Below, one piece after another: positions 1 through 19,040 of a DNA stretch of 64,000 nucleotides (its first letter is position 1; every line of letters begins with the position of its first letter). Position numbers and translations under genes: made by a program. The notes below the pieces were generated by a model. The model saw nothing but the letters and a program-made list of their open reading frames with translations, did not search any database and was not told where the DNA came from. Origin of the DNA: Gibbula magus (lineage: Eukaryota > Mollusca > Gastropoda > Trochida > Trochidae); assembly GCA_936450465.1 (NCBI GenBank), contig OW388297.1:54986989-55050988 (forward strand). The letters run 5' to 3'.

Positions 1-286
1 TCTAATATGTCAAAGAATGTTTTTGGAGCAAGAATTTCCAAGCAAATCTTTTTTAATTGTAAGCATGCTATTTGAAAATAAATGACATCTAAGTCATATT
101 TACTTATTGAGCCTATTTGACATCGGGATTCGCGGTTAACGAAAATAAACATTGATGTATCGTGGACCGTTTGGAGTATCGCATCAGGATATTTTTCAAA
201 ACAAAACTTAGTATCGATACACTGTATCGGCGGCCCATAGATCGATGCTTATCGATGCTTATCGATGAATCGTCGCACCACTAGTA
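1..286. other. sequence upstream of the exon array, no gene seen
   Basis: This AT-rich stretch has no recognisable exon. It contains short ATCGAT-rich direct repeats around 240-270 and stops abruptly where the tandem exon-bearing units begin near 287, inside what is intron in the other units. It may be transposon-derived. The promoter and first exon of the downstream gene are not visible here and probably lie outside the window. Confidence 0.4.
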
Positions 287-547
287 GTATTGCTTCTCTC
301 TGTTCTAAATATCTTAATGCACCTCACATATGCAAACTAATTCATCCTTAAACAACTCACAATTGTAAGGATATACAACTCACAAGTGCGGAGATCTACT
401 ACAGCTCAGAAGTGTAGAGATATACTACAGCTCACAAGTGTTGAGGTTACCTACGTTTCATTTGCCATATCTATAAGTTGGTGAACCTCACAATACCCCG
501 AAACTTGCGAGTGTGGTGTAATAATTTTACATTTCATGTTCATTTAG

Positions 548-706
548 GTGATTCTTTGGAACTACCTGATGCATCCCCAATGGAGGATTCGGAAGAACCT
601 ACACAGCCTTTAGTGAAGGTACCTACATCATCACTGACACAGTCAAAGGCCCTATCCACTACCTCAAGACAAGCTTCTGACTACAAACCACTTCCAAAAG
701 AACAGG
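548..706 (+). CDS. array exon 1 (class A)
   Basis: The 159-nt exon is phase 1 at both ends. It carries the longer MEDSEEPT variant and encodes Leu where most copies have Met after the Asp-Ser start. No in-frame stop is present; the acceptor is CATTTAG and the donor GTAAGT. Confidence 0.8.
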
Positions 707-3700
707 GTAAGTTTACAATACGTTTACAGTTATGCTTAGCGACTTAACAGCTAGCCCTAACTGTTAAATGACTAGGATATGGTATTGCTTCTTTCTCTTC
801 TAAATATCTTGATGCACCTCACATATGCAAACTAATTCATCCTTAAACAACTCACAATTGTAAGGATATACAACTCGCAAGTGCGGAGATCTACTACAGC
901 TCAGAAGTGTAGCGATATACTACAGCTCACAAGTGTTGAGGTTACCTACGTTTCATTTGCCATATCTATAAGTTGGTGAACCTCACAATACGCCGAAACT
1001 CACGAGTGTGATGTAATAATTTTACATTTTCATGTTCATTTAGGTGATTCCATGGAACTACCTGATGCATCCCCTATGGAGGAAGAACCTACACAGCCTT
1101 CAGTAAAGGTACCTACATCATCACTGACACAGCCGAAGGCCCTATCTGCTATCTCAAGACATGCTCCTGACTACAAACCACTTCCAAAAGAACAGGGTAA
1201 GTTTACAATACGTTTACAGTTATCCTTAGCGACTTAACGCTAGCCCTAACTATTAAATGACTTAGGATAGGGTATTGCTTCTTTCTCTTCTAAATATCTT
1301 AATGCACCTCACATATGCAAACTTATTCATCCTTAAACAACTCACAATTGTAAGGATATACAACTCACAAGTGCGGAGATCTACTACAGCTCAGAAGTGT
1401 AGAGATATACTACAGCTCACAAGTGTTGAGGTTACCTATGTTTCATTTGCCATATCTATAAGTTGGTGAACCTCACAATACGCCGAAACTCACGAGTGTG
1501 ATGTAAAATTTTTACATTTTCATGTTCATTTAGGTGATTCTATGGAACTACCTGATGCATCCACTGTGGAGGAAGAACCTACACAGCCTTTAGTAAAGGT
1601 ACCTACATCATCACTGACACAGCCGAAGGCCCTATCTGCTACCGCAAGACATGCTCCTGACTACAAACCACTTCCAAAAGAACAGGGTAAGTTTACAATA
1701 CGTTTACAGTTATCCTTAGCAACTTAACGCTAGCCCTAACTATTAAATGACTTAGGATATGGTATTGCTTCTTTCTGTTCTAAATATCTTAAAGAACCTT
1801 ACATATGCAAACTCATTCATCCTTAAACATCTCACAATTGTAAGGATATACAACTCACAAGTGCGGAGATCTACTACAGCTCAGAAGTGTAGAGTTATAC
1901 TACAGCTCACAAGTGTTGAGGTTACCTATGTTTCATTTGCCATATCTATAAGATGAACCTCACAATACGCCGAACCTCGTGAGTGTGATGTAATAATTTT
2001 ACATTTTCATGTTCATTTAGGTGATTTTATGGAACTACCTGATACATCCCCCTTTGAGGAAGAACCTACACAGCCTTTAGTAAAGGTACCTACATCATCA
2101 CTGACACAGCCGAAGGCCCTGTCCGCTACCTCAAGACATGCTCCTGACTACAAACCACTTCCCAAAGACCTGGGTAAGTTTACAATAGGTTTAAAGTTAT
2201 GCTTAGCGACTTAACAGCTAGCCCTAACTGTTAAATGACTTAGGATGGCTTCTCTCTGTTCTAAATATCTTAATGCACCTGACATATGCAAACTAATTCA
2301 TCCTTTTGTATACAACTCACAATTGTAAGGATATACAACTCACAAGTGCGGAGATCTACTACAGCTCAGAAGTGTAGAGATATACTACAGCTCACAAGTT
2401 TTGAGGTTACATATGTTTCATTTGCCATATCTATAAGATGGTGAACCTCACAATACCCCGAAACTCACGAGTGTGGTGTAATAATTTTATATTTTCATGT
2501 TCATTTAGGTGATTCTATGGAACTACCTGTTGCCCTTGTGGAGGAAGAACCTACACAGCCTTTATTTAAGGTACCTATATCATCACTGACACAGCCGAAG
2601 GCCCTATCCGCTACCTCAAGACATGCTCCTGACTACAAACCACTTCCAAAAGAACAGGGTAAGTTTACAATTTGTTTACAGTTATGCTTAGCAACTTAAC
2701 AGCTAGCCCTAACTATTAAATGACTTAGGATATGGTATTGCTTCTTTCTGTTCTAAATATCTTAAAGAACCTTACATATGCAAACTCATTCATCCTTAAA
2801 CAACTCACAATTGTAAGGATATACAACTCACAAGTGCGGAGATCTACTACAGCTCAGATGTGTAGAGTTATACTACAGCTCACAAGTGTTGAGGTTGCCT
2901 ACGTTTCATTTGCCATATCTATAAGATGAACCTCACAATACGCCGAACCTCGCGAGTGTGATGTAATAATTTTACATTTTCATGTTCATTTAGGTGATTT
3001 TATGGAACTACCTGATACATCCCCCTTTGAGGAAGAACCTACACAGCCTTTAGTAAAGGTACCTACATCATCACTGACACAGCCGAAGGCCCTGTCCGCT
3101 ACCTCAAGACATGCTCCTGACTACAAACCACTTCCCAAAGACCTGGGTAAGTTTACAATAGGTTTAAAGTTATGCTTAGCGACTTAACAGCTAGCCCTAA
3201 CTGTTAAATGACTTAGGATGGCTTCTCTCTGTTCTAAATATCTTAATGCACCTGACATATGCAAACTAATTCATCCTTTTGTATACAACTCACAATTGTA
3301 AGGATATACAACTCACAAGTGCGGAGATCTACTACAGCTCAGAAGTGTAGAGATATACTACAGCTCACAAGTGTTGAGGTTACATATGTTTCATTTGCCA
3401 TATCTATAAGATGGTGAACCTCACAATACCCCGAAACTCACGAGTGTGGTGTAATAATTTTACATTTTCATGTTCATTTAGGTGATTCTATGGAACTACC
3501 TGTTGCCCTTGTGGAGGAAGAACCTACACAGCCTTTATTTAAGGTACCTATATCATCACTGACACAGCCGAAGGCCCTATCCGCTACCTCAAGACATGCT
3601 CCTGACTACAAACCACTTCCAAAAGAACAGGGTAAGTTTACAATTTGTTTACAGTTATGCTTAGCAACTTAACAGCTAGCCCTAACTGTTAAATGACTTA

Positions 3701-6700
3701 GGATATGGTATTGCTTCTTTCTGTTCTAAATATCTTAATGCACCTCACATATGCAAACTAATTCATCCTTAAACAACCCACAATTGTAAGGATATACAAC
3801 TCACAAGTGCGGAGATCTTCTACAGCTCAGATGTGTAGAGTTATACTACAGCTCACAAGTGTTGAGGTTGCCTACGTTTCATTTGCCATATCTATTAGTT
3901 TGTGAACCTCACAATACCCCGAAACTTGCGAGTGTGGTGTAATAATTTTACATTTCATGTTCATTTAGGTGATTCTATGGAACTACCTGATGCATCTCCA
4001 ATGGAGGATTCGGAAGAACCTACACAGCCTTTAGTGAAGGTACCTACATCATCACTGACACAGCCAAAGGCCCTGTCCGCTACCTCAAGACATGCTCCTG
4101 ACTACAAACCACTTCCAAAAGAACAGGGTAAGTTTACAATACGTTTACAGTTATGCTTAACGACTTAACGCTAGCCCTAACTATAAAATGACTTAGGATA
4201 TTGTATTGCTTCTTTCTGTTCTAAATATCTTAATGCACCTTACATATGCAAACTAATTCACCCTTAAACAACTCACAATTGTAAGGATATACAGCTCACA
4301 AGTGCGGAGATCTACTACAGCTCAGAAGTGTAGTTATACTAAGCTCACAAGTGTTGAGGTTACCTATGTTTCATTTGCCATATCTATAAGTTGGTGAACC
4401 TCACAACACCCCGAAACTCGCGAGTGTGATGTAATAATTTTACATTTTCATGTTCATTTAGGTGATTTTATTGAACTACCTGATACATCCCCCTTCGAGG
4501 AAGAACCTACACAGCCTTTAGTAAAGGTACCTACATCATCACTGACACAGCCGAAGGCCCTGTCCGCTACCTCAAGACATGCTCCTGACTACAAACCACT
4601 TCCCAAAGACCTGGGTAAGTTTACAATAGGTTTAAAGTTATGCTTAGCGACTTAACAGCTAGCCCTAACTGTTAAATGACTTAGGATGGCTTCTCTCTGT
4701 TCTAAATATCTTAATGCACCTCACATATGCAAACTAATTCATCCTTATACAACTCACAATTGTAAGGATATGCAACTCACAAGTGCGGATATCTACTACA
4801 GCTCAGAAGTGTAGAGTTATACTACAGCTCACAAGTGTTGAGGTTACCTATGTTTCATTTGCCATATCTATAAGATGGTGAACCTCACAATACGCCGAAA
4901 CTCACGAGTGTGGTGTAATAATTTTACATTTTCATGTTCATTTAGGTGATTCTATGGAACTACCTGTTGCCCTTGTGGAGGAAGAACCTACACAGCCTTT
5001 AGTGAAGGTAACTACATCATCACTGACACAGCCGAAGGCCCTATCCGCTACCTCAAGACATGCTCCTGACTACAAACCACTTCCAAAAGAACAGGGTAAG
5101 TTTACAATTTGTTTACAGTAATGCTTAGCGACTTAACAGCTAGCCCTAAGTGTTAAATGACTTTGATATGGTATTGCTTCTTTCTGTTCTAAATATCTTA
5201 ATGCACCTCACATATGCAAATTAATTCATCCTTAAACAACTCACAATTGTAAGGATATACAACTCAGAAGTGCGGAGATCTACTACAGCTCAGATGTGTA
5301 GAGTTATACTACAGCTCACAAGTGTTGAGGTTACCTATGTTTCATTTGCCATATCTATAAGATGAACCTCACAATACGCCGAAACTCACTAGTGTGATGT
5401 AATAATTTTACATTTTTATGTTCATTTAGGTGATTTTATGGAACTACCTGATACATCCCCAATGGAGGAAGAACCTACACAGCCTTTAGTAAAGGTACCT
5501 ACATCATCACTGACACAGCCGAAGGCCCTGTCCGCTACCTCAAGACATGCTCCTGACTACAAACCACTTCCCAAAGACCCGGGTAATTTTACAATAGGTT
5601 TAAAGTTATGCTTAGCGACTTAACAGCTAGCCCTAACTGTTAAATGACTTAGGATATTGTATTGCTTCTCTCTGTTCTTAATATCTTAATGCACCTCACA
5701 TATGCAAAATAATTCATCCTTAAACAACTCGCAATTGTAAGGATATACAACTCACAAGTGCGGAGATCTACTACAGCTCAGAAGTGTAGAGATATACTAC
5801 AGCTCACAAGTGTTGAGGTTACCTATGTTTCATTTGCCATATCTATAAGTTGGTGAACCTCACAACACCCCGAAACTCACGAGCATGGTGTAATAATTTT
5901 ACATTTTCATGTTCAATTAGGTGATTTTATGGAACTACCTGATACATCCCCTTTCGAGAAAGAACCTACACAGCCTTTAGTGAAGGTACCTATATCATCA
6001 CTGACACAGCCGAAGGCCCTGTCCGCTGCCTCAACACATGCTCCTGACTACAAACCACTTCCAAAAGAACAGGGTAAGTTTACAATAGGTTTACAGTTAT
6101 GCTTAGTGACTTAACAGCTAGCGCTAACTATCAAATGTCTTAGGATATTGTATTGCTTATCCCCATTAAGATATTAATCTACCTCACATGTGCTTAATAC
6201 TTAACTCTAAATAACTCACAAGTGTGGAGATATTCGTTAACTAACAAGTGTGAGATATACTACAGCTCACGAATGTTGAGAACCTAGGTTTCACCTGACA
6301 TATTTATAAGTTGAACCTACAATAACCCGAAACTCGAGATTGTGGAGTAATAACTTTACATTTTCACGTTCATTTAGATGGTATGGAACTACCTGATACA
6401 TCCCCTGTCACTATACAGCCATTAGTGAAGGTACCTACAACACTGACAGAGCCGGAGGAAGGCGACCTTATTTTCACCCTGGATTTCACAAGTTAGTGAA
6501 CCTCACTACTGAAACTCTGCTTAGACGTTGACTTGCTTCGGTAACAGTTTTGATAGGCCGGTTTCTTTTACTCAGTGTCACTTGGATTGATTACAACAGT
6601 ATTTTAAAGTATTCTCTGTATTTAAGTTTTCTGCTTGATGACATACTGAGGAAAATAATTTTTACTAATACATAAAAGTTCAAATACGAAATAATAGTGA

Positions 6701-9700
6701 CTAGTCGCATTTATATGAGTACTTTTCAATGGAACCTTAGCATCAGGTCAGATGAAAACAAAATGAAAGACGCAGATGAACTTGTGGTTTTGATTCAGAC
6801 AATATTAGCCTTACATTACTGAATTCATCTCATTTTCATTGTGTTACATGCATATTTGTTCCTGTTTATTTTAGATGTACCGGAAGGTGACATGGAGAAG
6901 GTGGATAATTCCTTCAGTGATGACTCAGGAGATGAGTTTGTTTTGGATAGTCACGATGATAGTGATAGTGACAGTAGTTCTGAAACTTTTCCTGGAATTA
7001 AGGAGAGTCTGAATGAGTTCGACTTCGACTTTGACGACGAGTTTGATGTTATCCCTGAAGCTAAGAATCCACAGTTGTTCATCACAAAAGTTATCAAAAG
7101 CTTCACAGCAAAGAATGGAAAGACCAAGAAAGACCCAAGAGTTTTCAATAGTTACCAGTACTGTTTACCCTGTTCAAAAAAGGTGTCAAAATTCAGCCAA
7201 CATATTTGCCGTCGACACAAGAATGAACCAGCGGTAAAGGAAATCTGCATGATGGAGAAAGGAAAGGAAAAGAAAACAGCTATTGGTATGTTACGGAATA
7301 AGTACAATCATCATCACAACCTGAAATCAATAGAGAAGGGTAAGGGTGAAATCATTCTTCACAGAAGACCTACTCATGAATTTGTGTTGTCAGAATATGG
7401 TCCGTGTCCAGATTGTCTACAATGGATACAACAAAAACTATTGAAGAGACACCAGAAATCATGCTTTAGAAGTGACACGTGTGAGAGCCCTCAGGGTTTC
7501 CTTAAAACCAAAAGTGATGCTTTGGCAGGAAGAATACATACCCAAGCATCAGCTAAGCTCACAAAAGAAGTCTTTGCCATTATGAGATCAGATGAATTTG
7601 GGAAAGTCGCCCAAGAAGATCCGCTCATTATAGCGCTCGGAAATCAGTGGATGGACAAAAATATTGGGAATGAATTGAAGAGAGGAAAATACACTTCACA
7701 GATCATGAGGCTTTGTGCAAAGCTGTTGGTAGAACTGAGGAAAATCAAACCCCTTGATAACAACTCCATGGCTGACTTCTTGACTCCTGGAAATTTCAAT
7801 GAAATAGTTGAAGCTGTCCTGAAGATATCTTCCCTGAATGAACAAGAAGAAAAGCAAACACCAAGCAATGCCATTAAGATTGGCTATGATTTGAAGAGCT
7901 TGATTAACCTGAAGCTTGTATTTTGTGGAATAATGCAGAAAGACGAACCAGCCAGGAAAGATTGTGAAGATCTCATGCAGATGATGAAAGTACTTTGGGG
8001 GACTAAAGTCACAAAGACTGCCAGAGTATTACTGGATACCCGCAAGTTTCAGAAGAGTGTTCCTCTCCCGTCGGCTGAAGACATTACAAGGTTGCACGAT
8101 CATCTGCAGGAAGAACTGAAGGAGGTAGATCTAAGCGAAGAAACATATGACAACTTTATCAGAGTAGCAGAGTTGACAATATCCAAAATTGTTACCTACA
8201 ACAGGAGACGGACAGGAGAAGTTGAAGCTGTAAAGTGAGTTTTAATTGATACACCTTGATACACCTTGATACACCTTGAAGTATTCCACCACCTGTTTTT
8301 ACAGTGACTGCCTTGATATGAATTTTTTTGATTCATTGATACTGAACGAATTCATATCAATTGATTATCTCAAGTAAAACATACAAACATACATGATAGA
8401 AAAACTAACAAATTCTTTGAAATTTGGGGATAGAAATAGCGATATAAATATTTATATATATATATATTTCGAGTAATACATAAAATATTTCCCCTTGCGA
8501 TCTAATTTTAATATTAAGAAAAAAACATTGAAAACTGTTTGACCTTATAATGGACATACTTTCATAATCCTATTGTATTTGTAATATGGCTTTTATATGT
8601 AGTATTTGTACCACTTGTGCCAATATATTTCCAATGATACTTATGATTTCTACCATTAATCCTAATTACTGTGAGGTACTGTTAGTCACTAACTAAACTC
8701 ATTATTTTGTAGAGTTCGGGATTACTGCAAAAGGTCACGGGGAGCTGTGAATGACATCACTGAATTAACGCGCTTTGAAAGGAGACTGCTTGAAACACAG
8801 GATGTAATGGAAGTCAGAGGAAAGGTAAATAGTGCCCTATTGATATAAGAAATTTTAAATGTATTAACGTAATTATAATCCAATGAAATGAATGCTATTT
8901 AGAACACATTTGTGTAAATTTATTATTTTATCATCCACAGGAGATAATGCGTTTGTGATACCAACCGATATCTCTTAGGAGATATCATTTTTACAGTAGA
9001 TTTATAACAATGCCCTGTTGGCTTAAGTTTTATCAACTTGTGTTGATATATTTGATATGAGGAGACACTTGGATGAGATTCTCAATTTCCCATAATGTTT
9101 TATTTAGTTATTCCACTTGAGCTCAATGGAGAATATGACATATTCATGTCATCATTGCTCATTGATCTTAATGCTGAATAATATTTTAGAGACAAATTAA
9201 CTTTCTAGATAGTGTTTACAGAATAATTATTTTCTTGTTCCTTTTAGACCGGAAGAGGTGTTCCTATCATACTGCCACCAGAAATACAGAAGACCATGGA
9301 TTTTCTCTCCAATTCTGTTGTCCGACAGAAATGCGGCATCAAGAGCCCCTATCTATTTGCAAGAAAAGGTACCACTATCAGAACATTCAGGGCTGTTACA
9401 ATTACATGTGAACATTTGTCATATATTGTTTTATGTCCACAAAGTACTGGATTACATCAATTGATATAATCTAGCATTGTCAGTATAACTAAATCAAACA
9501 CCCTTCGGATAACTTTGCAAATTTACCCTTTGAAAATTGAATGTTTGGTTACCCTACCAGAAAGTTTTGGGATATTAATAAGATACAATTTTGTTCATCT
9601 TTGTTTTACATTGTTTTAGGCCATGGGCCGAACCCTCAAATTGTGTCAAAGTGCTTCAACATATCTGGTGAATACAAAGTTTGTGTTTTAGAATTATCTC

Positions 9701-12700
9701 TATAATTTATCATGACCTCTAAAAAACTTTTCTGGTTAATTAAGTTGCACATTAATAATTTAGAAGCCTCAGAATTAAAAATAATCTGCAGTAAATCTCC
9801 ATGACTGCAAATACATTATTGACCAATCACAAGACAGGAAGCCGTCCATTCTGTGCGGTACTACAACATGGCCATGGCCAGAGTATGGCATGTTTATGTC
9901 ACATCAATGGGGATAAACTAGCTGATTAACATCCATTTATGGATATAACATGGACAAAAGTAAATCAGCATCAAGATAGAGACGTCTACAGAACTGGTTG
10001 GAAAACGCTCTCACACTGATGTAAAATGTGTATCTCATTTCAGAAAGACTGTAACGTGTTGAAAAATAAATGGATTTAAATAAAATGGTTTTCTCTTTTT
10101 TATGTGAGGCTCACAGATGGGCTTGTGTTATCGTGTTCTTTTTCGACTTCTTATCAAGAACCACTGTTTCTAGAGGGACTCCTTGCCCCATGGGGTTTAT
10201 TCATAAAGTGTGTACGCATTTAGTGGCACAGAGGCAACAACTTAAACACCTAATTGTATCCTCTTCTCAAGTAGGTAAAGCTCAAGGAAGCTAAAATCTT
10301 GTGTACAGACTCCTTAGCCAGACAAACTTCAAAGCCATTGGCTTCAATTTTGTCAATTGATAATTCTGAAAAAAAGTCTACAACTGTACAATCTGGAAAT
10401 ATATTTGGGATTCTCTTAAAAAATACTACTCCTTGCTTTAGATAGGTCATTACAAGTACTACTAACCATACTTGTAAATATGGAAATTTTATTGCATTTG
10501 GCCTTCTCATAATCTTGTGAGTTTAAAGGTTCTGAAGTCTGTTACTAAAAAGAAAGAGACTTAGGCTCTGTAGCTTTCAGAATTTGCTTAATTTATTATC
10601 TAAGGTTTGAAGATCTAAAACAACTAATTTCCCAAGTTATACATTTGAATGTTTTTGGTCAAAATACCTTAATTGGCATTAAAAAAGTTAAATAAAAAAT
10701 GTGTGTGTATGCTGTCATATACACCATGCAAATAACCCCCTTCTCACTCTACCTCCTCCTAAGTTCAATACACATCTCTATTTTGCAGTACCCACTACCA
10801 AGGTGACAATAAGGTCAGCTGTGATTGTGCAAGAATGAATGAGACAGTTTAACTTCATGCAACTGAAACAGAATTTAATCTACTCAAGAGTATATAAGCT
10901 ATATTTTGGTTATACAGTGCATTTGAAACGTCACATCAACATCTATATGGTTAGATTCTTGAGAGGTATTATATCTTTTTATATCTGGTTCTTGGAGAAA
11001 AGTCGGTACAAGATTTTAGACTGGACCCCCTGCCGCGCCCATATTTAAGGAGGGTGAGGGTCAAATAAACAAACTTTGATCCCCTAGGTGCAAGGTACCT
11101 CCCCTAAAAATTTCAGCTTTGGTGGAATAGTGGTTCTTCTTGAGAAGTCGAAAGTTTACAGACATCACCGGACTACGACCCATGCCATAAGCGCACCTGA
11201 TCGTTTAGACCTGAAGAGCTAAAATGACATTTCTTCACTTAAAATACATTAATCACAATTTATACTTAATTCCCCAAGTATAACTCAAAGTGTTCTTTGA
11301 CAGTAACATACATTTTTTTAATGAACTCTAATGAATTACTGAACTATAATTTGAATTGAATTATTTTTTTTATTAATTTGATAATTAATAATTCTATCAT
11401 ACTATAATTTTTCATACACTTTGTCTTCATTATTATTATCAGACACAACTTTTCAAAGTGAGAAAAACTGGGTGAAAAAATTACTTCTATGTTGTCTTAT
11501 ATATTAATGCAAATCTGAAACTGACCGAAATATTGGATGGGTGTCATTCAAATTTATTGTTTCATAATTTTGCTACATTGATTTCATATTGAGTATCTGA
11601 CTGGATAGCACAGAATAATGTAATGGAATAGCAATAATGGAATACAAAAACAAATTATGTCCAAGATTAAAGTGTTTCTGCGAAAATATTTTATTCATTC
11701 ATGTGGTAATACTGATTTAACACACTGAAAAAAAATGTAATTCTGATTGTTTTTAGATTCATTAAATTTTAATAAATATGGACTAATTATGAATTTAGAA
11801 AAGAATTTTCAACTGTTTTAACAAAAGTTTTCTTGCACAAGTACATTGAAAAGCTGGCCAATGCAATTACCCACAGGCCAAGGTCAAGGCTGAATGATCA
11901 GAATCTGCGCAGGGGGTACCACTCTTTCAAGAGCTGTAGATAATTAATGTGCAACTTTTTTAGCAAGAAAAGTTTTGTTTCTCATCAAGCACATGCTGGG
12001 GATCATTTTGATATATAGTTCTGGTATTCACCAAATATGTTGAAGCACTTTCCTATTTCTAGAGGCCCTAGAATTTTTGGCCCACGGCCTATTTATCATG
12101 GATTGTATTATTGTAGGAGATGGGACTGTACGAGCATATGATGCATTGCATAAGACTGCGACATCAGCCGGGATTGAGGAGCCCTCAAAAGTAACAAGCA
12201 CCCAGCTGAGGAAGTACATGGCTACCATTACTCAGGTATTTATTGGTAACTTTGACAATAATACAGACCATTGAAAGCTAAGTTTTTCCAATTAACACGC
12301 CCATAAAATTAAGAGAACTTTCATAGGTGCTAATTTCTCCTAGTTGTTTATCTAGTCCATAAAGGTCAATCATTAAGTGAATATGAAATATTCGCTTCGT
12401 TGATGGTCATTGTCATTGAACCCAAATATCTTTTGAATACAAATTATTTATTTAAAAAATACAGCTGTGTGTACCCCCCATTAAAGAAACAAACTAATGT
12501 GATCATCATATTTCTCAGTCGTCACTCCAGTGTTTCAAATGTGCCCAGTGATGCAATCTGAATGATACTTTTTAGAAATGCAATTAATTGGGTTTAATGT
12601 TCATTGGTCTTGGTATAAATTGCCCATTTTATTGTGGTTGTGAAGGTGGAACAGCAGAGGGCGACATCCTCAGATTTTGGGCTACTCTTGTTTTTGGTCC

Positions 12701-13381
12701 CGCAAACGTTAATTGAATTTATTTCAGTGACTTGCTTTACTTGGGAGGGGATAGGCTATAGGGGAAAAAAAATTTAATTGTCTATTGTCTAATAATTTGT
12801 TTTCGTTTTAGGTCCTGGATCTGAAGGAAAATCAGCTAAACTGGGTTCTGAATCATATGGGCCACACTCTTGATGTCCACAAGATCCACTATAGGGCAAC
12901 AAGTGACGTAATAGAAAGGACACAGATTGCAAAGATTCTCCTCATCCAGGATCATTCAAGAATGAAGGAATTTGCCAACAGGAAACTGGAGGACATACAA
13001 ATGGATGAACTTTTGTTAGAAGCGAAGGAAAGGTCTGAACAGGACATCACAGGGGGTGAACTTGAGGAACTCTTGGACAAAGCAGAGAAGTTCTTTGACG
13101 AAGAAGTTGTTGAAGAAGATGAAGCGAAGAAAGCAAGATCTCATTTGACGAGAAAAACCTGGTCAAAGGAAGAAGAAGAAGAAATTAAGGCAGAATTCCG
13201 AGAAAACTTCGACAGATTATGCCGTCCGAAGGTGAAGGCAGTCGAGAGATGTTTGCGGAAGAGCAAGAAAAGAGGTGGTACTCTTCATTTGCGCACAAAA
13301 GAAACCCTGAAGAAAAAGATATTCAGAATGATTGATGCAGAATTAAGAAAGACAGCAGACTGTAATGATCAGCATAAGTGA
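548..13381 (+). CDS. multi-exon tyrosine-recombinase-like protein with repeat-exon N terminus (5' incomplete)
   Basis: Exons visible here are the 12 array exons followed by 6875-8234, 8713-8824, 9248-9368, 12117-12235 and 12812-13381. Phases agree at every junction: 1, 2, 0, 1, 0. The last five exons give about 760 residues, and each array exon adds 50-53. Domains in order are a Pro/Thr/Glu-rich repeat region, an acidic Ser/Asp-rich segment, a C2H2-like and a C2HC-like finger, an alpha-helical linker, a tyrosine-recombinase-like core with Arg (NRRRTGE), Lys (VRGKTGRG), Arg (TQLRK), His (MGH) and Tyr (HYR), then an acidic coiled stretch and a Myb/SANT-like end. I recognise the C-terminal part as a recurrent uncharacterised metazoan family, abundant in fish and marine invertebrates. 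The usual His of HxxR is Thr here. DNA binding is likely; recombinase activity is uncertain. It may be a domesticated or still mobile Crypton/DIRS-like YR gene. Confidence 0.75.
1044..1196 (+). CDS. array exon 2 (class B)
   Basis: The 153-nt exon is phase 1 at both ends and encodes a 51-residue unit with ELPDASPMEEEPTQPSVKVP and ending in KEQ-Gly. Splice signals are intact. Confidence 0.8.
1534..1686 (+). CDS. array exon 3 (class B variant)
   Basis: The 153-nt exon is phase 1 at both ends and reads DASTVEEEPT in its variable segment. Acceptor and donor are intact and the frame is open. Confidence 0.8.
2021..2173 (+). CDS. array exon 4 (class C)
   Basis: The 153-nt phase 1-1 exon has DTSPFEEEPT and the class-C ending PKDL-Gly. 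It is identical in sequence to array exon 6. Confidence 0.8.
2509..2658 (+). CDS. array exon 5 (class D)
   Basis: The 150-nt phase 1-1 exon has PVALVEEEPT and is one codon shorter than classes B and C. It is the twin of array exon 7, 973 bp downstream. Confidence 0.8.
2994..3146 (+). CDS. array exon 6 (class C)
   Basis: The 153-nt phase 1-1 exon is identical to array exon 4 and lies 973 bp downstream of it, part of a duplicated C-D dimer. Confidence 0.8.
3482..3631 (+). CDS. array exon 7 (class D)
   Basis: The 150-nt phase 1-1 exon is the twin of array exon 5. Acceptor, donor and frame are intact. Confidence 0.8.
3969..4127 (+). CDS. array exon 8 (class A)
   Basis: The 159-nt phase 1-1 exon carries the MEDSEEPT variant otherwise seen only in array exon 1, and its upstream intron also resembles that of unit 1. 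Confidence 0.8.
4462..4614 (+). CDS. array exon 9 (class C)
   Basis: The 153-nt phase 1-1 exon encodes Ile where most copies have Met, has the SPFEEEPT segment and the PKDL-Gly ending, and keeps its frame and splice sites. Confidence 0.78.
4946..5095 (+). CDS. array exon 10 (class D)
   Basis: The 150-nt phase 1-1 exon has PVALVEEEPT and a Pro-to-Thr change in KVTTSS. The intron stops soon after the donor, so no long ORF spans it, but the exon itself is open. Confidence 0.78.
5430..5582 (+). CDS. array exon 11 (class C variant, weaker donor)
   Basis: The 153-nt phase 1-1 exon has DTSPMEEEPT and the ending PKDP-Gly. Its donor is GTAATT rather than GTAAGT, so it may be used less efficiently. 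Confidence 0.72.
5921..6073 (+). CDS. array exon 12 (class C/B hybrid)
   Basis: The 153-nt phase 1-1 exon has SPFEKEPT but the KEQ-Gly ending. The acceptor is CAATTAG instead of CATTTAG. It is the last copy with both splice sites and is the nearest to the main coding exon. Confidence 0.75.
6378..6484 (+). pseudogene. decayed thirteenth array exon
   Basis: It starts after CATTTAG with the recognisable MELPDTSP sequence but loses the conserved middle. It fuses through a deletion to what is intron in other units and reaches a stop without a GTAAGT donor. It is probably skipped. Confidence 0.7.
6485..6874 (+). other. intron between array and main exon
   Basis: The sequence is AT-rich with no homology to the array beyond about 6500. 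It ends in a good pyrimidine tract and TTTTAG acceptor at 6874. Nothing else is recognised. Confidence 0.6.
6875..8234 (+). CDS. main exon: acidic region, two zinc fingers, start of recombinase core
   Basis: The 1360-nt exon enters in phase 1: the G of an array exon plus AT gives Asp. It leaves in phase 2 at GTGAGT. The open frame begins slightly upstream, but that is intron, and the GTG there is not a start. Residues about 5-60 are Ser/Asp/Glu-rich. C97, C100, H110 and H115 form a C2H2-like finger (CX2C, X9, HX4H). C178, C181, H193 and C197 form a C2HC finger. A helical region follows. NRRRTGE near residue 445 matches the first catalytic Arg box of tyrosine recombinases (known for the fold; function inferred). 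Confidence 0.88.
8235..8712 (+). other. intron
   Basis: The intron runs GTGAGT to GTAG. Near its start it has three copies of a 10-11 bp GATACACCTT motif and around 8450 a short TA run. No gene is seen. Confidence 0.7.
8713..8824 (+). CDS. recombinase-core exon B
   Basis: The 112-nt exon's first A completes a Lys codon. It then encodes 37 residues from VRDYCKRSRG to MEVRGK and ends in phase 0 at GTAAAT. The final Lys fits the beta-hairpin Lys of tyrosine recombinases, completed by TGRG in the next exon. Confidence 0.85.
8825..9247 (+). other. intron
   Basis: The intron runs GTAAAT to TTTTAG. AT-rich; nothing else recognised. Confidence 0.65.
9248..9368 (+). CDS. recombinase-core exon C
   Basis: The 121-nt exon encodes 40 residues (TGRGVPIILPPEIQKTM ... 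SPYLFARK) plus one base, leaving in phase 1 at GTACCA. The GxxVPIILP stretch is the strand after the catalytic Lys in this family. Confidence 0.85.
9369..12116 (+). other. 2.75-kb intron with dispersed-repeat fragments
   Basis: The intron has fragments resembling other repeats of the window. 10250-10330 has the 'tgtgtacagactccttagcc' theme of the 19-kb satellite; 11130-11220 looks like the end of a molluscan interspersed repeat. Short ORFs here have no codon or splice support. It ends with TATTGTAG. Confidence 0.6.
12117..12235 (+). CDS. recombinase-core exon D
   Basis: The 119-nt exon enters in phase 1 (G plus GA) and leaves in phase 0 at GTATTT. It encodes DGTVRAYDALHK ... TSTQLRKYMATITQ. 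TQLRK aligns with the HxxR box of tyrosine recombinases; the first position is Thr instead of His while the Arg is kept. Confidence 0.85.
12236..12811 (+). other. intron
   Basis: The intron runs GTATTT to TTTTAG. AT-rich, no gene or clear repeat recognised. Confidence 0.65.
12812..13381 (+). CDS. terminal exon: catalytic Tyr, acidic coil, Myb/SANT-like end
   Basis: The 570-nt phase-0 exon encodes 189 residues then TGA. It begins VLDLKENQLNWVLNHMGH, where G17-H18 is the conserved Gly-His, and Y27 in HKIHYR is the candidate nucleophile. Residues about 60-110 are acidic and coiled. KTWSKEEEEEIKAEF (W near 117) starts a Myb/SANT-like helix set seen at the C terminus of relatives in other animals. 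No AATAAA lies close behind the stop. Confidence 0.87.
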   Translation, partial: VLDLKENQLNWVLNHMGHTLDVHKIHYRATSDVIERTQIAKILLIQDHSRMKEFANRKLEDIQMDELLLEAKERSEQDITGGELEELLDKAEKFFDEEVVEEDEAKKARSHLTRKTWSKEEEEEIKAEFRENFDRLCRPKVKAVERCLRKSKKRGGTLHLRTKETLKKKIFRMIDAELRKTADCNDQHK

Positions 13382-13439
13382 TCGACATTTCACATTTTCG
13401 GAGTTTCGGATTTGTCTATATGGCCGAGTTTTACGTTAT

Positions 13440-13850
13440 CTTCCGAGTTTTTTTTAGTTTATTATTTTGAGATGGTATCTAGGAATTACTTTATTTTGTT
13501 ATTTGATAAAGTAACAAAGACTCCAATGTTGATGTTGTAGGAGTATCTCAGAGTTAAAGAGTTAATTATACGAGTCGGAGTTTAAGCTGTTACAAGTGAC
13601 AATATCATTTTTAAATCAATGTCTGAGTATGACCTCATGTTATTTAGGGGTGTCTAAGTTTGTTAGTTTGAGACAGTTTCTAGATATGACTTAAATTTGT
13701 TATTTGGTACAGTAACAAAGACAATGTTGATGATGTTGAATGACTATCTCAGAGAGTTGGTTACATTCAAAGGAAGGCAAGCTCTTACCAGTGACCATTT
13801 TTATGCTTCAAACAATAATGTCTGAGTATGACCACGTTTTGTGATGTACG
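13440..13850. repeat. tandem duplication of about 200 bp behind the recombinase stop codon
   Basis: Two diverged copies, about 13450-13645 and 13655-13845, share segments such as 'agtaacaaagac...caatgttgatg' and 'aatgtctgagtatgacc'. They probably lie in the 3' UTR. Confidence 0.7.
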
Positions 13851-14034
13851 GTTATGCAACAATGTTCTGCCCTTAAATTTAATTAACAACTAAGGCCTTT
13901 GGTTGACATTATTGATACACATTTTTTTTTAAAAGAAAATGTTTTTATATTTTTATCTGCATGGTCATGTCTGGTAATATGTCCATGAACATGCGTATCA
14001 TTTATAGTCCAATCCTGTCATATCAGCAAATTTT

Positions 14035-14460
14035 TATCATGTCCCCCGAAAAAATTTCTGGTTTCCATGTGAACAATTTGAAGTGAGTGCAAATTGGGGC
14101 TAGGGACCTTTTCCGACCTCTATTTCAAAATCTATCCAGTATTTCTGAACCAAAATTGGTATGTAGTTAGACCTAGTGGTGGAGTGGTGCCTTTTGCCAT
14201 TTTTTGGTTATTCTGATATTTTTTTTCTTCTGGTTTCCATGGAAACAATTTGAACTTGGTGCGTATTGGGGGTAGGGCCCTTTTCCGGCCTCTATCTCCA
14301 AAACCGTTAAATATTTTTTTCACCAAACTTTGTATTTGCTTAGACCTAGTGATAGAGTGGTGCCTATTGCTACTTTGGCTATTCTGTTGTTTTTTTTTAT
14401 TACTCGTTATTAATGCAGTATTGAACTTAGTGCTTAGCATAAGTGAAAAATAAGGGTAAT
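14035..14460 (+). repeat. dispersed element, two internal direct copies
   Basis: A unit reading 'tctggtttccatgnnaacaat...' to '...tagacctagtg...' occurs twice, at about 14055-14215 and 14228-14385. The same family appears in reverse orientation at 37070-37640, including the shared flank near 'gggacatcacagtgcat'. Type unknown. Confidence 0.75.
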
Positions 14461-16307
14461 ATGACTAGGTTGGATTGAAAGTTGGAGTGAGGGACATCAC
14501 AGTGCATTACATGCACATATTTCTATTTGATAATAATTTCATACATCATTAATAAAGGGTAACATCACTGACATAATTGGTTACAGTGAACACTGATAAG
14601 AATTCTGTGAAAGATAAGGCAGTTTCATAAAAAAGGTTTGTAGTCAGGTTCTCAAAGATGGATTTACGTTGGTATTTTACAAGAAATTATAACTTCACCA
14701 CAAAGATATCATCACAGATTTGAAAGGTAACATCACTGACATTAAATGATAATAAATAATAGAACTCACCATCGTAGCACAGATAATGTGTTTGTTTACT
14801 TTCTATTCATTAGTATAAAGGAAATATTTTCTGATGTTTAAAGATACACACTTCATGTCTTGAATAAATCAAGTATGCCGTACCAACAGGAATTACCTGC
14901 TAAGTATGGTAGAGCATAAAAACGGAAATGTTTTAATCAGCAACAGGACAGACAGTTAATGACCATTGCAACTTGTTGACTAAAAATACAAGTTCTCATA
15001 ATGACATTGATGTGTCACAAAAGAAATTTATATTAATAACAACTGATGTACAGTACATTGTGGAGTTGCATCTCGCAATGACAGAATATTGGCAAAGTAC
15101 TTACTAATAGTCGTTATGACTGAATTAATAGGTAACTTTAATTGGAAAACAACTTTCAATAAAGAATGAACTATGCATTTCAGTGAAGCTAATCTGAAAT
15201 ACTTTCCCAGCTTTCCACACAACTCACTGATCCACTAGTGATGAAGTATCATTGCTCTTACATAATGGCTCCTGTGTTTTATTTCGGTGTTCATATTTCA
15301 TACTAACTTAAGTTGTCCATCGAAATGCAAGCACAGAGGTGTCCATCGCGTAAAGCGGGTGTTCATGAACACCTGGTATAGCTGTGAACACCTGATATGA
15401 GTAAACTTCTTATTTGTATATCCACTTTTGTTTCTTTCAAATCCATGTGATGATAAATAGTAGAATAGCATTTCTCAACATAAGCAAATCGCAAATACTT
15501 TTAACGGAATGTGGGATCGAACCTGCAACCAAATGGTTTCTGGTCAAGTGATCTAATCATTACACCACGGAAACAGGATGAGTTAAGAAAGGCTTTTTCA
15601 TAATCAAATTAATAGTGTTCTTTGATTTGTTTGGATGCAAACTGTCATCAGTTCTTGTACAAGTTATTGATTTTTAAACTTCACTGAAAGTTCAAAATGT
15701 TTAAACTAAAATGAAAGTGTGTAAACCGGACATACTAACAATGACTATTTCGACCTTTCGTGTTTTTTTTCCATGCTTAAGTTTTCACAACATCCCAGTA
15801 ACAGTCCAGACGTTTGGGTAGGGGCTGTAGAAATCGACCCATGTATATTAAAGAGGGCATATTACAACATTTTACCATTGAATATTGCTGTAGTTTGGCA
15901 AATGACTTTAAATCAAGTTCATATTTTATTGTCCTGAACAACGTTATTTTCCTACAAAAAATAATCAGAAGCATAATCATGCTACACAAGTGTAGGTTTT
16001 CTAAATTTGATCTTGGATATCTCGAGATTTACCTTCATCTTCTCTAGCCAATCTCAGATTTTATTACCTTACTGGTACACTGCATATTCATCCAGTGTTC
16101 CATATCTCTTTAGCAGAGTTTAATTTTGGAGATTTTATTAATACTAATCAATTAATGAATACTATCAATCAGACTAAAACAAAGTAAAACTTGTTCAAAA
16201 CAATTTAAGCATACCATTTATAAGTAATATTTGTTCTTTTTCAACAATTAATACAATTGATTTGTCAGTGATGTTACTTTTTATGTCAGTGATGTTACCA
16301 TAATTGA
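14461..16307. repeat. possible 1.8-kb inverted-end element
   Basis: The motif GTAACATCACTGACAT occurs in direct orientation at about 14561 and 14727 and inverted at about 16265-16300 (twice). This gives matching inverted sub-terminal repeats around a gene-less interior. The interior holds tRNA-like boxes near 15515 but no long ORF. No target-site duplication was identified. Confidence 0.4.
15511..15583 (-). repeat. tRNA-like pol III promoter remnant
   Basis: On the minus strand TGGTGTAATGATTAG resembles an A box and GGTTCGATCCC a B box about 40 nt later. The acceptor and T stems do not pair cleanly, so a degenerate tRNA-derived SINE head is more likely than a working tRNA gene. Confidence 0.45.
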
Positions 16308-16607
16308 TATATCGCTTTGAACCTTATAGTTAAAGTGACATTTCTTTGTTGTGATATTTTTTTACTAACTGTAAAACACAATGTATGACACAACTGGAGA
16401 AATTCAAATTGGGATTAAAATGTGTAACATGAAAATAATTCCTTGTTACCAGTTTTGCTCCTTTTTTGGAAAATGACCCGTAAACTTCTTGACTAGAAAA
16501 GGGGTTAACTTTATCATGTTTATTTTATTCTGAGTTGCAACCCAGATGTTTTTATCTCTGCAAAATTCTACATTTGTGGGTTTTGCATGGGATTATGGGT
16601 AATTTAA

Positions 16608-16985
16608 ATGGCGACCAGTGTTAGACTCAGCATGGGGCAGTGTTGTGGTAAGAAGTTAAAGGTACGGTTAAACACCTGTGAAGAGCAACTTGATAGCATG
16701 GACTGTAGGATGCAGATGATGATTAGGGACATTGATAAACTTTATATATATGCAGAGTGTCCTAAACATTGCTCCTATATGGACAGATTGTCAATTGTTG
16801 AAAGTGAACTGAAGTGTTTGAAGTCACGTCCTCCACGTCTACCACCACGATCATTTGAACGACCATCACCGAGGGTACTGTTTGCCCCACATCCAACTCC
16901 AAATACTTCGGAGTCCATGGGAAATTGTTCAAGTGAATCCTACATTGATATGCACTCTCCGGGAACTTCCACTGCACAATCCTAA
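16608..16985 (+). CDS. short single-exon protein with predicted N-terminal acylation
   Basis: The open frame has 125 codons before TAA. The second ATG at 16632 has the better context (AGCATGG) and gives MGQCCGKK: Gly2 for N-myristoylation, adjacent cysteines for palmitoylation and a basic patch, giving 117 residues. The middle is helical and Cys-rich (CEEQLDSMDCRMQMMIRDID), possibly a coiled coil. Residues about 74-90 are Pro/Arg-rich (RPPRLPPRSFERPSP), a candidate SH3-binding segment; the tail is Ser-rich. AATAAA follows at about 17009. The protein is not recognised. It could be a small membrane-tethered adaptor, or a retrocopy or chance ORF. Confidence 0.5.
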   Translation: MATSVRLSMGQCCGKKLKVRLNTCEEQLDSMDCRMQMMIRDIDKLYIYAECPKHCSYMDRLSIVESELKCLKSRPPRLPPRSFERPSPRVLFAPHPTPNTSESMGNCSSESYIDMHSPGTSTAQS

Positions 16986-17005
16986 AGATCTATGTTGCCT
17001 TCAAA

Positions 17006-17020
17006 CAAATAAAGTTATTG
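17006..17020 (+). terminator. poly(A) signal of the short acylated-protein gene
   Basis: CAAATAAAG lies about 20 nt after the stop of the 16.6-kb ORF on the same strand, which supports a real transcript end. Confidence 0.45.
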
Positions 17021-17089
17021 GAATGAATGTTTCAGGGTTTTTTGTGATATATTTCCATAGTCTGTAGCTCTCAAGTCTTCAGCCTTTAA

Positions 17090-17383
17090 AGGCGCTGTAG
17101 CATGTTTTTTGCAAATTTTATTTTTGCAAATTTCTCATTTATAATCCGTAGTTGTAATAAAGGTGTTGTGTACAAAGCCAAAATTGCATGGCAGCCATTT
17201 TATTGTGAACACATTTTATTATTTTGAATGACAAAAACTATTCCCAGGGCTTTACGAAACTATGTACACTCTTTTGTAACTTGATTTTCTGAAGAGAGAA
17301 GGGTGTTTTACTATTGTTGACATTATTTTTCAAATACATTTCATCGACTTATTTGAGCGGGAAAAAAACATGCTACAGCGCCT
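17090..17383. mobile_element. TTAA-flanked MITE, copy 1
   Basis: The TIRs are AGGCGCTGTAGCATGTTTTT and its complement. TTAA lies directly on each side (17086-17089 and 17384-17387), the piggyBac-type target duplication. At 294 bp it has no coding capacity. Other copies lie near 26.3, 34.2, 39.3, 40.1 and 44.4 kb. Confidence 0.85.
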
Positions 17384-17387
17384 TTAA

Positions 17388-17672
17388 TGCCTCTCCAAAG
17401 TATTTCTCTTATATCACAGCTACTAGTATTATTGCAGGGAGAAAGCCTGCAGCGCCAAGTGACCATGCATGCGGTGAAACCTGCGATCATCGGCTGGAAC
17501 TAGTGAACGATGTGTGGTACCTCGCTGAAATTCAGTGTAGCATTGGGCCCAAACCTTACTGCATGTAGAACAGTTCTCTACTGCAGACAAAGTTGCTGTG
17601 CCCCTGGCGGGATTCGAACCCGGGACCTCTTTGATCTGAAGCTGAACGCCCTAACCACTGCGCTATCCCCCC
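17388..17672 (-). mobile_element. tRNA-headed SINE, family S1
   Basis: On the minus strand it starts with a tRNA-like head: GGATAGCGCAGTGGTTAGGG as A box and GGGTTCGAATCCCG as B box. The body is shared with the copies at 51.9 and 56.5 kb. The 3' side is truncated next to MITE copy 1. Confidence 0.85.
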
Positions 17673-19040
17673 TCTTGTAAATGGAAACTTGCAAAACACA
17701 TATATTTTTTTTTAAAGTCACATTTAAAGAAATTACTTTTGAAATATGTCCCATTATGAATAGCGATTCCGTTAACCATGTAATGAATTTTGTTCCTCAT
17801 TACTTGTATGCAAAAACGTATGCAATTTTGCATTGTCTGATTGAAACTTTTAAGGAGAACATAGTAAAATGTGATCATAATGAATGCAGAGTACTTTATC
17901 AATGCACAGGCATAGGTACGTGGTTGTTGGCAGTATAATTAGAAGGCAGAAATGTGATTTCAACCTTGAATAATGCTCGAATTTAAGAGAAAAAACTGGG
18001 ATGAGAATATTAAGCTTATCAGCTGTTTTGGGATTGGTCTATATTGTAGTTTTTTCCATAGATTTCTATTCTGGAACCTTCATGTCATGCATTTCAACTG
18101 AAATCAAACAACCCATTGCCATCCCTGAAAACCAAGTAATAGTTATATTTAATTGGCATTAGAGGAAGAATGTGCAAGTCGTACGAGATAATTAGATGAG
18201 CAACAAATTGAAAACATACCTATAACTGATGAAGCACAACTAAATGATACACTTTTATTAATGATGTATCTACAATCACACATCTCTGGAAACAATGGAG
18301 TATTAATGAAACAATATCAATATGCTAATCAATACCTTTGGGAATGCTGTTGGTAGTGTAACTCAAACTAGTATCGTCAAAGGGGAGACAATTCTAAAGT
18401 GTTGTGAAAAACGCCAGTGAGAAATTGCAAAAGGGGGTTGAAACATTTGCTCTCATATGATTTGTGGTCAAGGGGGAGACAATTTCAAACGCAAAGAAAC
18501 AGAAGTGGATTGCAATAGCTGATTAGCTCGCATGTCATTGATGTACTATTAAGATGATACCAGATATTTACTAAAACTTTTGATTTGAAAGTCTATCATC
18601 AAAAGGTGTTCCAATGATGCTGCATACACTGATGACAGCAAAAGTTTTTAAAATATGGTATTTTTAGACAAACGGCACTGTGGATACTCAAGAAAGCTTT
18701 CCCTTGTGAAACCCCATAACATTAGGCGCATAATTTGCATAAGTACGGACTTGGTCTTATCACAAGTTACGGACACTGTGCTAAGTATAGTAACTCCTCT
18801 AGGAACTTCCGAATGTTGCACCCCATACAGTTCAGTAGATAATTAACCCATAACTGACGGATGTACATGATATTTGAAACTCGGAAGTATACGGACAGCT
18901 CAAATGCACAATTCACGGACGCTAAGGTGCTGCTCTTAAGTGCTAGATGTACTATCAAGCACCCCACAAATGAAATTACCCCACAACTACTCTCTCGTGG
19001 GTACGTCCGTCCGTCCGTCCATCCGTCCGTAAACTTTTCG
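17673..19040. other. gene-less region with repeat fragments
   Basis: No convincing exon is seen. 18380-18490 has two GGGGAGACAATT-type motifs and 19005-19030 has a GTCC microsatellite at the edge of the satellite. The short ORFs overlap on both strands and look random. Confidence 0.5.

What the first reader, a model, noticed from the sequence alone, without database searches (positions are those of the whole stretch)
548..6874. Modular array of 12 symmetric exons feeding a recombinase gene
Twelve tandem exon copies are all phase 1-1, all open, and all keep AG and GT signals. The last base G plus GT always makes Gly, and G plus AT makes Asp at the junction to 6875. Any subset can be spliced in frame, so one locus could produce proteins with zero to twelve copies of a 50-53-residue Pro/Thr/Glu-rich module ahead of a DNA-binding recombinase-like protein. 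I know of no description of such a module on this family.
Basis: partly seen in the sequence, partly recalled or inferred. Interest (0 to 1): 0.85.

Follow-up and report, generated by a model that had tools for sequence, protein, structure and literature searches.

The report
Jumping gene with variable exon array
The twelve repeated exons belong to the recombinase gene of a large, recently active jumping element, and near-identical copies of that element elsewhere in the same genome carry different numbers of these exons, so the front end of the enzyme probably differs in length from copy to copy.

Summary
In detail: 12 tandem exons (548-6073), phase 1-1, open, AG/GT kept. A 13th exon (6378-6491) and upstream module exons behave alike. 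But this is no single host gene. The genome holds nine end-to-end copies, on nine contigs, of a 30.6-44.5 kb element with 99-100% identical end stretches; the window holds its 3' half (to about 19004). Six 3' ends read sit at GTCC-type repeats. The downstream 760-aa protein keeps tyrosine-recombinase residues and models like Xer recombinases. Ten young arrays have 9, 10, 10, 10, 12, 12, 12, 13, 14 and 22 exons, though five compared copies differ from the window's by only 0-0.5% outside the array. All 93 exons read are open. Length changes are multiples of three in 7 of 7 exon and 8 of 21 intron events (P 0.005); substitutions alone show little constraint. An upstream exon matches the point where two scallop relatives' own, dissimilar N-terminal repeats begin; 11 of 30 informative relatives carry such arrays. 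Most likely: a mobile recombinase gene whose coding exon array encodes a repetitive N-terminal tail. No transcript was available; the isoform ladder is untested.

The parts
1..19004 (+). 3' half of the mobile element (C9 copy; its 5' end lies about 19.4 kb upstream of the window, G000:C9:54967572)
   Evidence: homology to other copies and end searches
287..6158 (+). tandem array of 12 intron-exon units of about 488 bp
548..706 (+). array exon 1 (159 nt, phase 1-1)
1044..1196 (+). array exon 2 (153 nt)
1534..1686 (+). array exon 3 (153 nt)
2021..2173 (+). array exon 4 (153 nt)
2509..2658 (+). array exon 5 (150 nt)
2994..3146 (+). array exon 6 (153 nt)
3482..3631 (+). array exon 7 (150 nt)
3969..4127 (+). 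array exon 8 (159 nt)
4462..4614 (+). array exon 9 (153 nt)
4946..5095 (+). array exon 10 (150 nt)
5430..5582 (+). array exon 11 (153 nt, donor GTAATT)
5921..6073 (+). array exon 12 (153 nt)
6378..6491 (+). diverged 13th module exon (114 nt, phase 1-1, donor GTTAGT)
   Evidence: found in all seven copies read; 126 nt in C12
6494..8362 (+). interval missing with the same breakpoints in copies C2, C4, C7 and C16
6875..8234 (+). first recombinase exon
   Evidence: homologues
8713..8824 (+). recombinase exon 2
9248..9368 (+). recombinase exon 3
9617..12091 (.). nested insertion in the window copy, not part of the element
   Evidence: absent from the six other copies compared; uninterrupted site in C17
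12117..12235 (+). recombinase exon 4
12812..13381 (+). recombinase last exon with stop
16608..16985 (+). small open frame of the element (125 aa), function unknown
   Evidence: 56% identical over 75 aa to a frame beside the C17 copy
19005..19030 (.). GTCC-type repeat at the 3' junction

Best explanation
The array is the variable-number coding part of the recombinase gene of a large (about 31-45 kb), recently active tyrosine-recombinase transposon. Shown: near-identical copies with common ends on different contigs; GTCC-type repeats at the six 3' ends and the one 5' end that were read; a tyrosine-recombinase-like protein; phase 1-1 symmetry of each array, module and 63-nt exon found before the recombinase exons; exon number that differs between copies (9-22) while the array's outer units stay nearly the same; a kept reading frame. 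Inferred: the units are spliced in and translated as a repetitive, probably disordered N-terminal tail; units are gained and lost by unequal exchange or slippage, mostly inside the array; because each unit is a phase 1-1 exon with its own splice sites, any number leaves the recombinase in frame. The element probably moves by recombinase-mediated recombination between its ends and short GTCC repeats, as has been proposed for Cryptons.
For: Mobility: recombinase exon at 97-100% identity on seven contigs; 5' terminal 300 bp at 100% in 10 places and 3' terminal 300 bp at 99-100% in 10 places, pairing to nine end-to-end elements; no difference between C9 and C17 in 9,039 bp outside the array; GTCC-type repeats at the 3' end in six copies and at the 5' end in C17; four copies that share one deletion of the first recombinase exon. 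Array: 12, 14, 22, 12, 10, 13 and 10 exons in C9, C5, C10, C17, C14, C11 and C12; 10, 10, 9 and 12 in C2, C4, C7 and C16 (my count of match rows). Coding: 93 of 93 exons open and divisible by three; length changes multiples of three in 7 of 7 exon and 8 of 21 intron events, P 0.005; C9-C12 exon divergence 6.9% against 10.9% for introns. Position: 63-nt upstream exon found in seven of seven copies and similar to P0004 and P0033 (shuffle P 0.0002 and 0.0004; two of eight proteins tested) just before their own repeats. Recombinase: R, K, R, H and Y in 19 of 19 sequences (the window's and 18 relatives); Xer-type best fold matches; pN/pS 0.29 between C9 and C12 in exons 1-2.
Against: No transcript. 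Inside the window array exons are not slower than introns (6.9% against 5.2-7.8%, or 6.8% against 5.0-5.4% without pairs of exon 12) and pN/pS is 0.74, with 10 synonymous and 28 other changes against 7.8 and 22.8 expected at intron rates. The recombinase frame is broken in two of seven copies (C10, C12), C10 being the one with 22 exons. The 5' end was read in one copy only. No empty target site was seen. The start codon exon is not settled. The fold matches have E-values of 0.01-0.02 at best.
Confidence: 0.66

Rival explanations
1. The array is a non-coding satellite that grew inside the gene; the extra units are skipped, and their open frames are inherited from a recent common unit.
For: Units are young; within the window array exons vary as much as introns and pN/pS is 0.74. 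No transcript was available.
Against: No disabling change in 93 exons against about six expected in the window's twelve alone; exon indels all multiples of three; splice sites kept; exons more alike than introns between C9 and C12 and within C12; relatives have translated-frame arrays at the matching place.
Confidence: 0.2
2. The intron part is the functional part: the 26-bp sub-repeats act as regulatory or recombinase-binding sites and the exons ride along.
For: About four motif instances per unit (46 in the array) and almost none elsewhere in the window.
Against: No hit of 9 bits or more at the element ends; the one outside the array belongs to the upstream module exon's intron. Frame keeping of the exons is not explained.
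Confidence: 0.08
3. Array-length differences are assembly errors.
For: Repeats of about 488 bp at 91-100% identity can be mis-sized; the read type of the assembly is unknown here.
Against: Unit types keep the same order at both ends and differ in the middle; C9 and C17 on different contigs have the same twelve types; ten loci give six different lengths.
Confidence: 0.08
4. A host gene copied by segmental duplication, not a transposon.
For: Multi-exon gene with relatives in annotated animal genomes; an empty site was not seen.
Against: Same two ends in nine copies on nine contigs; flanks differ just beyond the 3' GTCC repeat in the six copies read, although four share a host repeat; deletion derivatives in four places.
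Confidence: 0.04

Closest known systems
Crypton tyrosine-recombinase DNA transposons (Kojima and Jurka 2011, PMC3212892; passages seen)
   Same: A transposon in an animal genome whose gene encodes a tyrosine-recombinase-like protein; short direct repeats, here GTCC, at the ends as far as read.
   Different: 31-45 kb; a multi-exon gene with an exon array; no Pfam DUF3504 or integrase match; His of HxxR is T, S or V. That Cryptons are much smaller is recalled.
90-bp exon arrays of Tetrahymena LRR genes (PMC6564038; passages seen)
   Same: Long tandem arrays of nearly identical symmetric coding exons, grown by clonal expansion.
   Different: [quoted passage not shown] here 150-159-nt exons with phase 1 introns in a transposon's recombinase gene, with number differing between near-identical copies.
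Uncharacterised recombinase-like proteins of bivalves, gastropods and echinoderms (P0001-P0044)
   Same: Same protein family; the 25 hits are 34-49% identical to the window's protein. 11 of 30 informative members have an N-terminal tandem array.
   Different: Their units (13-101 residues) show no clear similarity to this module (lowest shuffle P 0.046 of 12) and little to each other (2 of 66 pairs below 0.01). In the own-genome relative L008 the 26-residue unit, 12 copies, lies inside one exon.
Starship giant transposons of fungi (seen only as search listing)
   Same: Large elements with a tyrosine recombinase.
   Different: Fungal; no link by sequence was tested beyond Pfam, which gave no match.

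Membership tests
Tyrosine recombinase superfamily | Catalytic Arg, Lys, Arg, His, Tyr at the expected motifs | tested here: met
   R445, K491, R563, H589, Y598 conserved in 19 of 19 sequences (the window's and 18 relatives); motif assignment by eye, motif recalled
Tyrosine recombinase superfamily | His of the HxxR motif | tested here: not met
   T in 14, S in 4, V in 1 of 19; that known recombinases also vary here is recalled
Tyrosine recombinase superfamily | Fold of the catalytic domain | tested here: inconclusive
   [not shown]
Crypton | Mobile element encoding a tyrosine recombinase | tested here: met
Crypton | R-H-R-Y tetrad as given in PMC3212892 | tested here: inconclusive
   Both R and Y present; which His is meant was not checked; the HxxR His is replaced and the later His is kept
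Crypton | Short direct repeats (4-6 bp) at both ends | tested here: inconclusive
   GTCC-type repeats at six 3' ends and one 5' end; 5' ends of the other copies not read
Crypton | Sequence similarity to Crypton/DUF3504 recombinases | tested here: not met
   no DUF3504 or integrase match in Pfam for the window's protein or six relatives at E <= 5; no direct comparison with Crypton proteins was made
Coding tandem exon array | Symmetric exons, all open, splice sites kept | tested here: met
   93 of 93 exons in seven copies; not checked in C2, C4, C7, C16
Coding tandem exon array | Spliced into mRNA | not testable with these tools
   no transcript data available

The most novel reading that the evidence does not exclude
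A family of animal tyrosine-recombinase transposons repeatedly regrows a tandem N-terminal tail at about the same place in the protein, each lineage from largely dissimilar sequence; in this element the tail is encoded as a splice-symmetric exon array whose length changes so often that copies in one genome carry genes with 9 to 22 modules. Tail length would be a fast-evolving control, for example of multimerisation, chromatin targeting or escape from host silencing.
Probability: 0.33. Interest if true: 0.86.

Novelty: new variant of a known kind. Interest (0 to 1): 0.72.

Why it matters
If right, this is a large, recently active tyrosine-recombinase element in an animal genome whose recombinase gene is length-polymorphic through its exons. 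Near-identical copies with different exon counts form a natural length series, so tail length against copy success can be tested directly. The repeated presence of dissimilar N-terminal arrays in the family asks what selects for a repetitive tail on a recombinase. Eight literature searches (open-access library, listings only except for three papers opened for passages) showed no description of such an array on a transposon's recombinase.

Tried and rejected
Rejected: single-copy host gene. Rejected: the 26-bp intron sub-repeat as the element's terminal motif; a weight matrix found no hit of 9 bits or more at the ends of the C17 copy, although similar words had caught my eye. Doubtful: MRTEQ...EENEK (L035:3726-3876) as start exon; its match to relatives is weak (lowest shuffle P 0.03 of six) and its frame is broken in C12; the 63-nt exon is better supported. 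Module homologues: none at E <= 10. Viral contigs: no relative. Pfam gave no informative domain for the window's protein. Not used: pN/pS values for C10 and C12 over the whole frame (frameshifts); only exons 1-2 of C12 are used. Not obtained because the genome search did not complete: a stop check of modules in C2, C4, C7 and C16, the 5' junction in other copies, and the spread of L035:3601-3950. C10's array units are missing from the listing and are counted. P0042 and P0043 have borderline repeats (13.2 and 12.8) and were not counted as arrays; 14 of 44 relatives had no informative N-terminus. C12's 3' end was not found. In my notes L008's unit is given as 28 residues; one search shows 26.
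Full report
What is there. The window's first 6.2 kb hold a tandem array of 12 units of about 488 bp. Each unit has one exon of 150, 153 or 159 nt, open, phase 1-1, with AG before and GT after. Five exons from 6875 to 13381 splice to a clean 760-aa protein. Three things go beyond it. A diverged 13th exon of 114 nt lies at 6378-6491, again phase 1-1; its GTTAGT donor cuts just before an in-frame TAG. Upstream of the window, in L009, lie two more module exons (7453-7560, 108 nt; 7843-7968, 126 nt) and a 63-nt exon (4253-4315), all phase 1-1. With all of these joined the frame runs 1,510 residues to the stop.

It is a mobile element. A search of the window's own genome (1.47 Gb, 140 contigs, unnamed) gave 93 matches of the first recombinase exon: seven at 97-100% identity on seven contigs and 86 at 22-45%, several of these multicopy (lower bounds). 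Homology between the young copies runs far beyond the gene on both sides. On the 3' side it ends at about 19004, in GTCC-type repeats, after which flanks differ, although four copies share a host repeat there (six copies read, C12's end not found). On the 5' side the end was read in the C17 copy, again behind GTCC repeats. The terminal 300 bp gave 14 matches for the 5' end, 10 of them at 100%, and 13 for the 3' end, 10 at 99-100%. Pairing gives nine elements from end to end: C17 35.9 kb, C14 34.2, C10 44.5, C9 (window) 38.4, C5 36.3, C11 37.2, C7 30.6, C4 30.9, C2 30.9. C16 showed only the 5' end and C15 only the 3' end. C12 is older (92% at the 5' end; 5% mismatches in 5,818 aligned bp). C9 and C17 show no difference in 9,039 bp outside the array, which suggests very recent movement. 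The window copy has an insertion at 9617-12091 that the six other copies compared lack; C17 shows the uninterrupted site. The recombinase frame is intact in five of seven copies and frameshifted in C10 and C12.

Deleted relatives. C2, C4, C7 and C16 carry the array but lack 6494-8362, which holds the whole first recombinase exon, with the same breakpoints and 13 bp of overlap. One deletion that then spread to four places is what trans-mobilised derivatives look like; that reading is inference.

The array varies in number. From sequence the copies have 12 (C9), 12 (C17), 10 (C14), 13 (C11), 14 (C5), 22 (C10) and 10 (C12) array exons. From match rows C2 has 10, C4 10, C7 9 and C16 12 (my count). 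The module types at both ends are nearly the same in the six young arrays read, ending G-H-I-J (J twice in C11); the middle differs, often by D-E pairs. In about 9 kb outside the array, C5, C10, C14, C11 and C17 differ from the window copy by 0 to 0.5%. Array length thus changes much faster than sequence.

Are the exons coding? For: 93 of 93 exons are open, divisible by three and flanked by splice signals, and unit spacing leaves no gap where a broken unit could hide, apart from the duplicated end of C11, which includes exon 13 twice. At intron rates about 6.3 disabling changes were expected in the window array and none is seen. Exon length changes are multiples of three in 7 of 7 events against 8 of 21 in introns (P 0.005; 5 of 5 without the upstream exons, P 0.02; exon events listed by hand). 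Between C9 and C12 exons differ by 6.9% and introns by 10.9%; within C12 exons vary by 2.5% and introns by 8-13%. Against: within the window array exons are not slower than introns, pN/pS is 0.74, and the mix of changes is close to that expected at intron rates. Together this fits a tail whose frame matters and whose exact sequence matters little. The recombinase is constrained: pN/pS 0.29 in exons 1-2 between C9 and C12.

The place of the array. The 63-nt exon encodes EGLKNMKKTLAAFKSDCSWAK. It is in seven of seven copies; its two changes in C12 are synonymous by eye. Of eight relatives tested it matches two Pecten maximus proteins well (shuffle P 0.0002 for P0004, 0.0004 for P0033), the others weakly or not. 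In those two, this segment stands just before their own tandem repeats. Of 44 relatives from two searches, 30 had an informative N-terminus and 11 of these carry a tandem array with units of 13 to 101 residues. The units show no clear likeness to this module (lowest shuffle P 0.046 of 12) and little to each other (2 of 66 pairs below 0.01). In the own-genome relative L008 a 26-residue unit is repeated 12 times inside one exon. The relatives are not independent samples, and the searches scored only candidates sharing most words.

The protein. R, K, R, H and Y are conserved in 19 of 19 sequences, the window's and 18 relatives; the His of HxxR is T, S or V. AlphaFold2 models of P0001 and P0003 (mean pLDDT 67.6 and 72.8) give Xer recombinases and an integrase as best matches, at E 0.01-0.02. 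In the P0001 model nearly all of the first 210 residues, its own array included, have pLDDT under 50, which fits disorder. Pfam does not recognise the domain.

How it most likely works. A symmetric exon can be gained or lost without shifting the frame. Unequal exchange or slippage between units changes their number, and the recombinase stays readable. I propose that the tail is translated and, as relatives carry tails at the same site, that it tunes the recombinase or its contacts; both steps are inference.

Compared with what is known. It works like a tyrosine-recombinase DNA transposon, nearest in concept to Cryptons (passages of PMC3212892), but membership is not shown. The exon array is most like the 90-bp exon arrays of Tetrahymena LRR genes (passages of PMC6564038), which are host genes. 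A review of giant transposons (PMC6431247, passages) mentions tyrosine recombinases only for bacterial elements in the places found. Eight searches showed no such array on a transposon's recombinase; the library is open-access only.

Noticed in passing
window 9617-12091: Nested insertion with inverted ends (116 aligned bp, 72% identity) in intron 3 of the window copy only; C17 shows the uninterrupted site.
   Followed up: partly
L037:1-1720: The C17 copy sits just behind what looks like the 3' end of a related element: a frame 56% identical over 75 aa to the window's small frame, then TCGTGGGTACGTCCGTCC, the same end sequence. Elements may insert next to each other.
   Followed up: partly
window 16608-16985: Small open frame of 125 aa in the element, no Pfam match, related frame beside the C17 copy.
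   Followed up: partly
homologues P0006 and P0027: Two relatives carry a SET-like domain (P0006 just under the Pfam cut-off; P0027, a sea cucumber protein named N-lysine methyltransferase).
   Followed up: no
G000 C16, C17, C9, C12, C11 (37% matches): A second, diverged recombinase family in this genome has six matches at 37% with open frames of 968-1058 aa, so other such elements may be young too.
   Followed up: no
window 19043-20754: Tandem repeat of period 145 bp, 11.9 copies, directly beyond the element's 3' end.
   Followed up: no
window 41779-43254 and 57842-58528: Open frames that look like reverse transcriptase of non-LTR retroelements, judged by eye.
   Followed up: no
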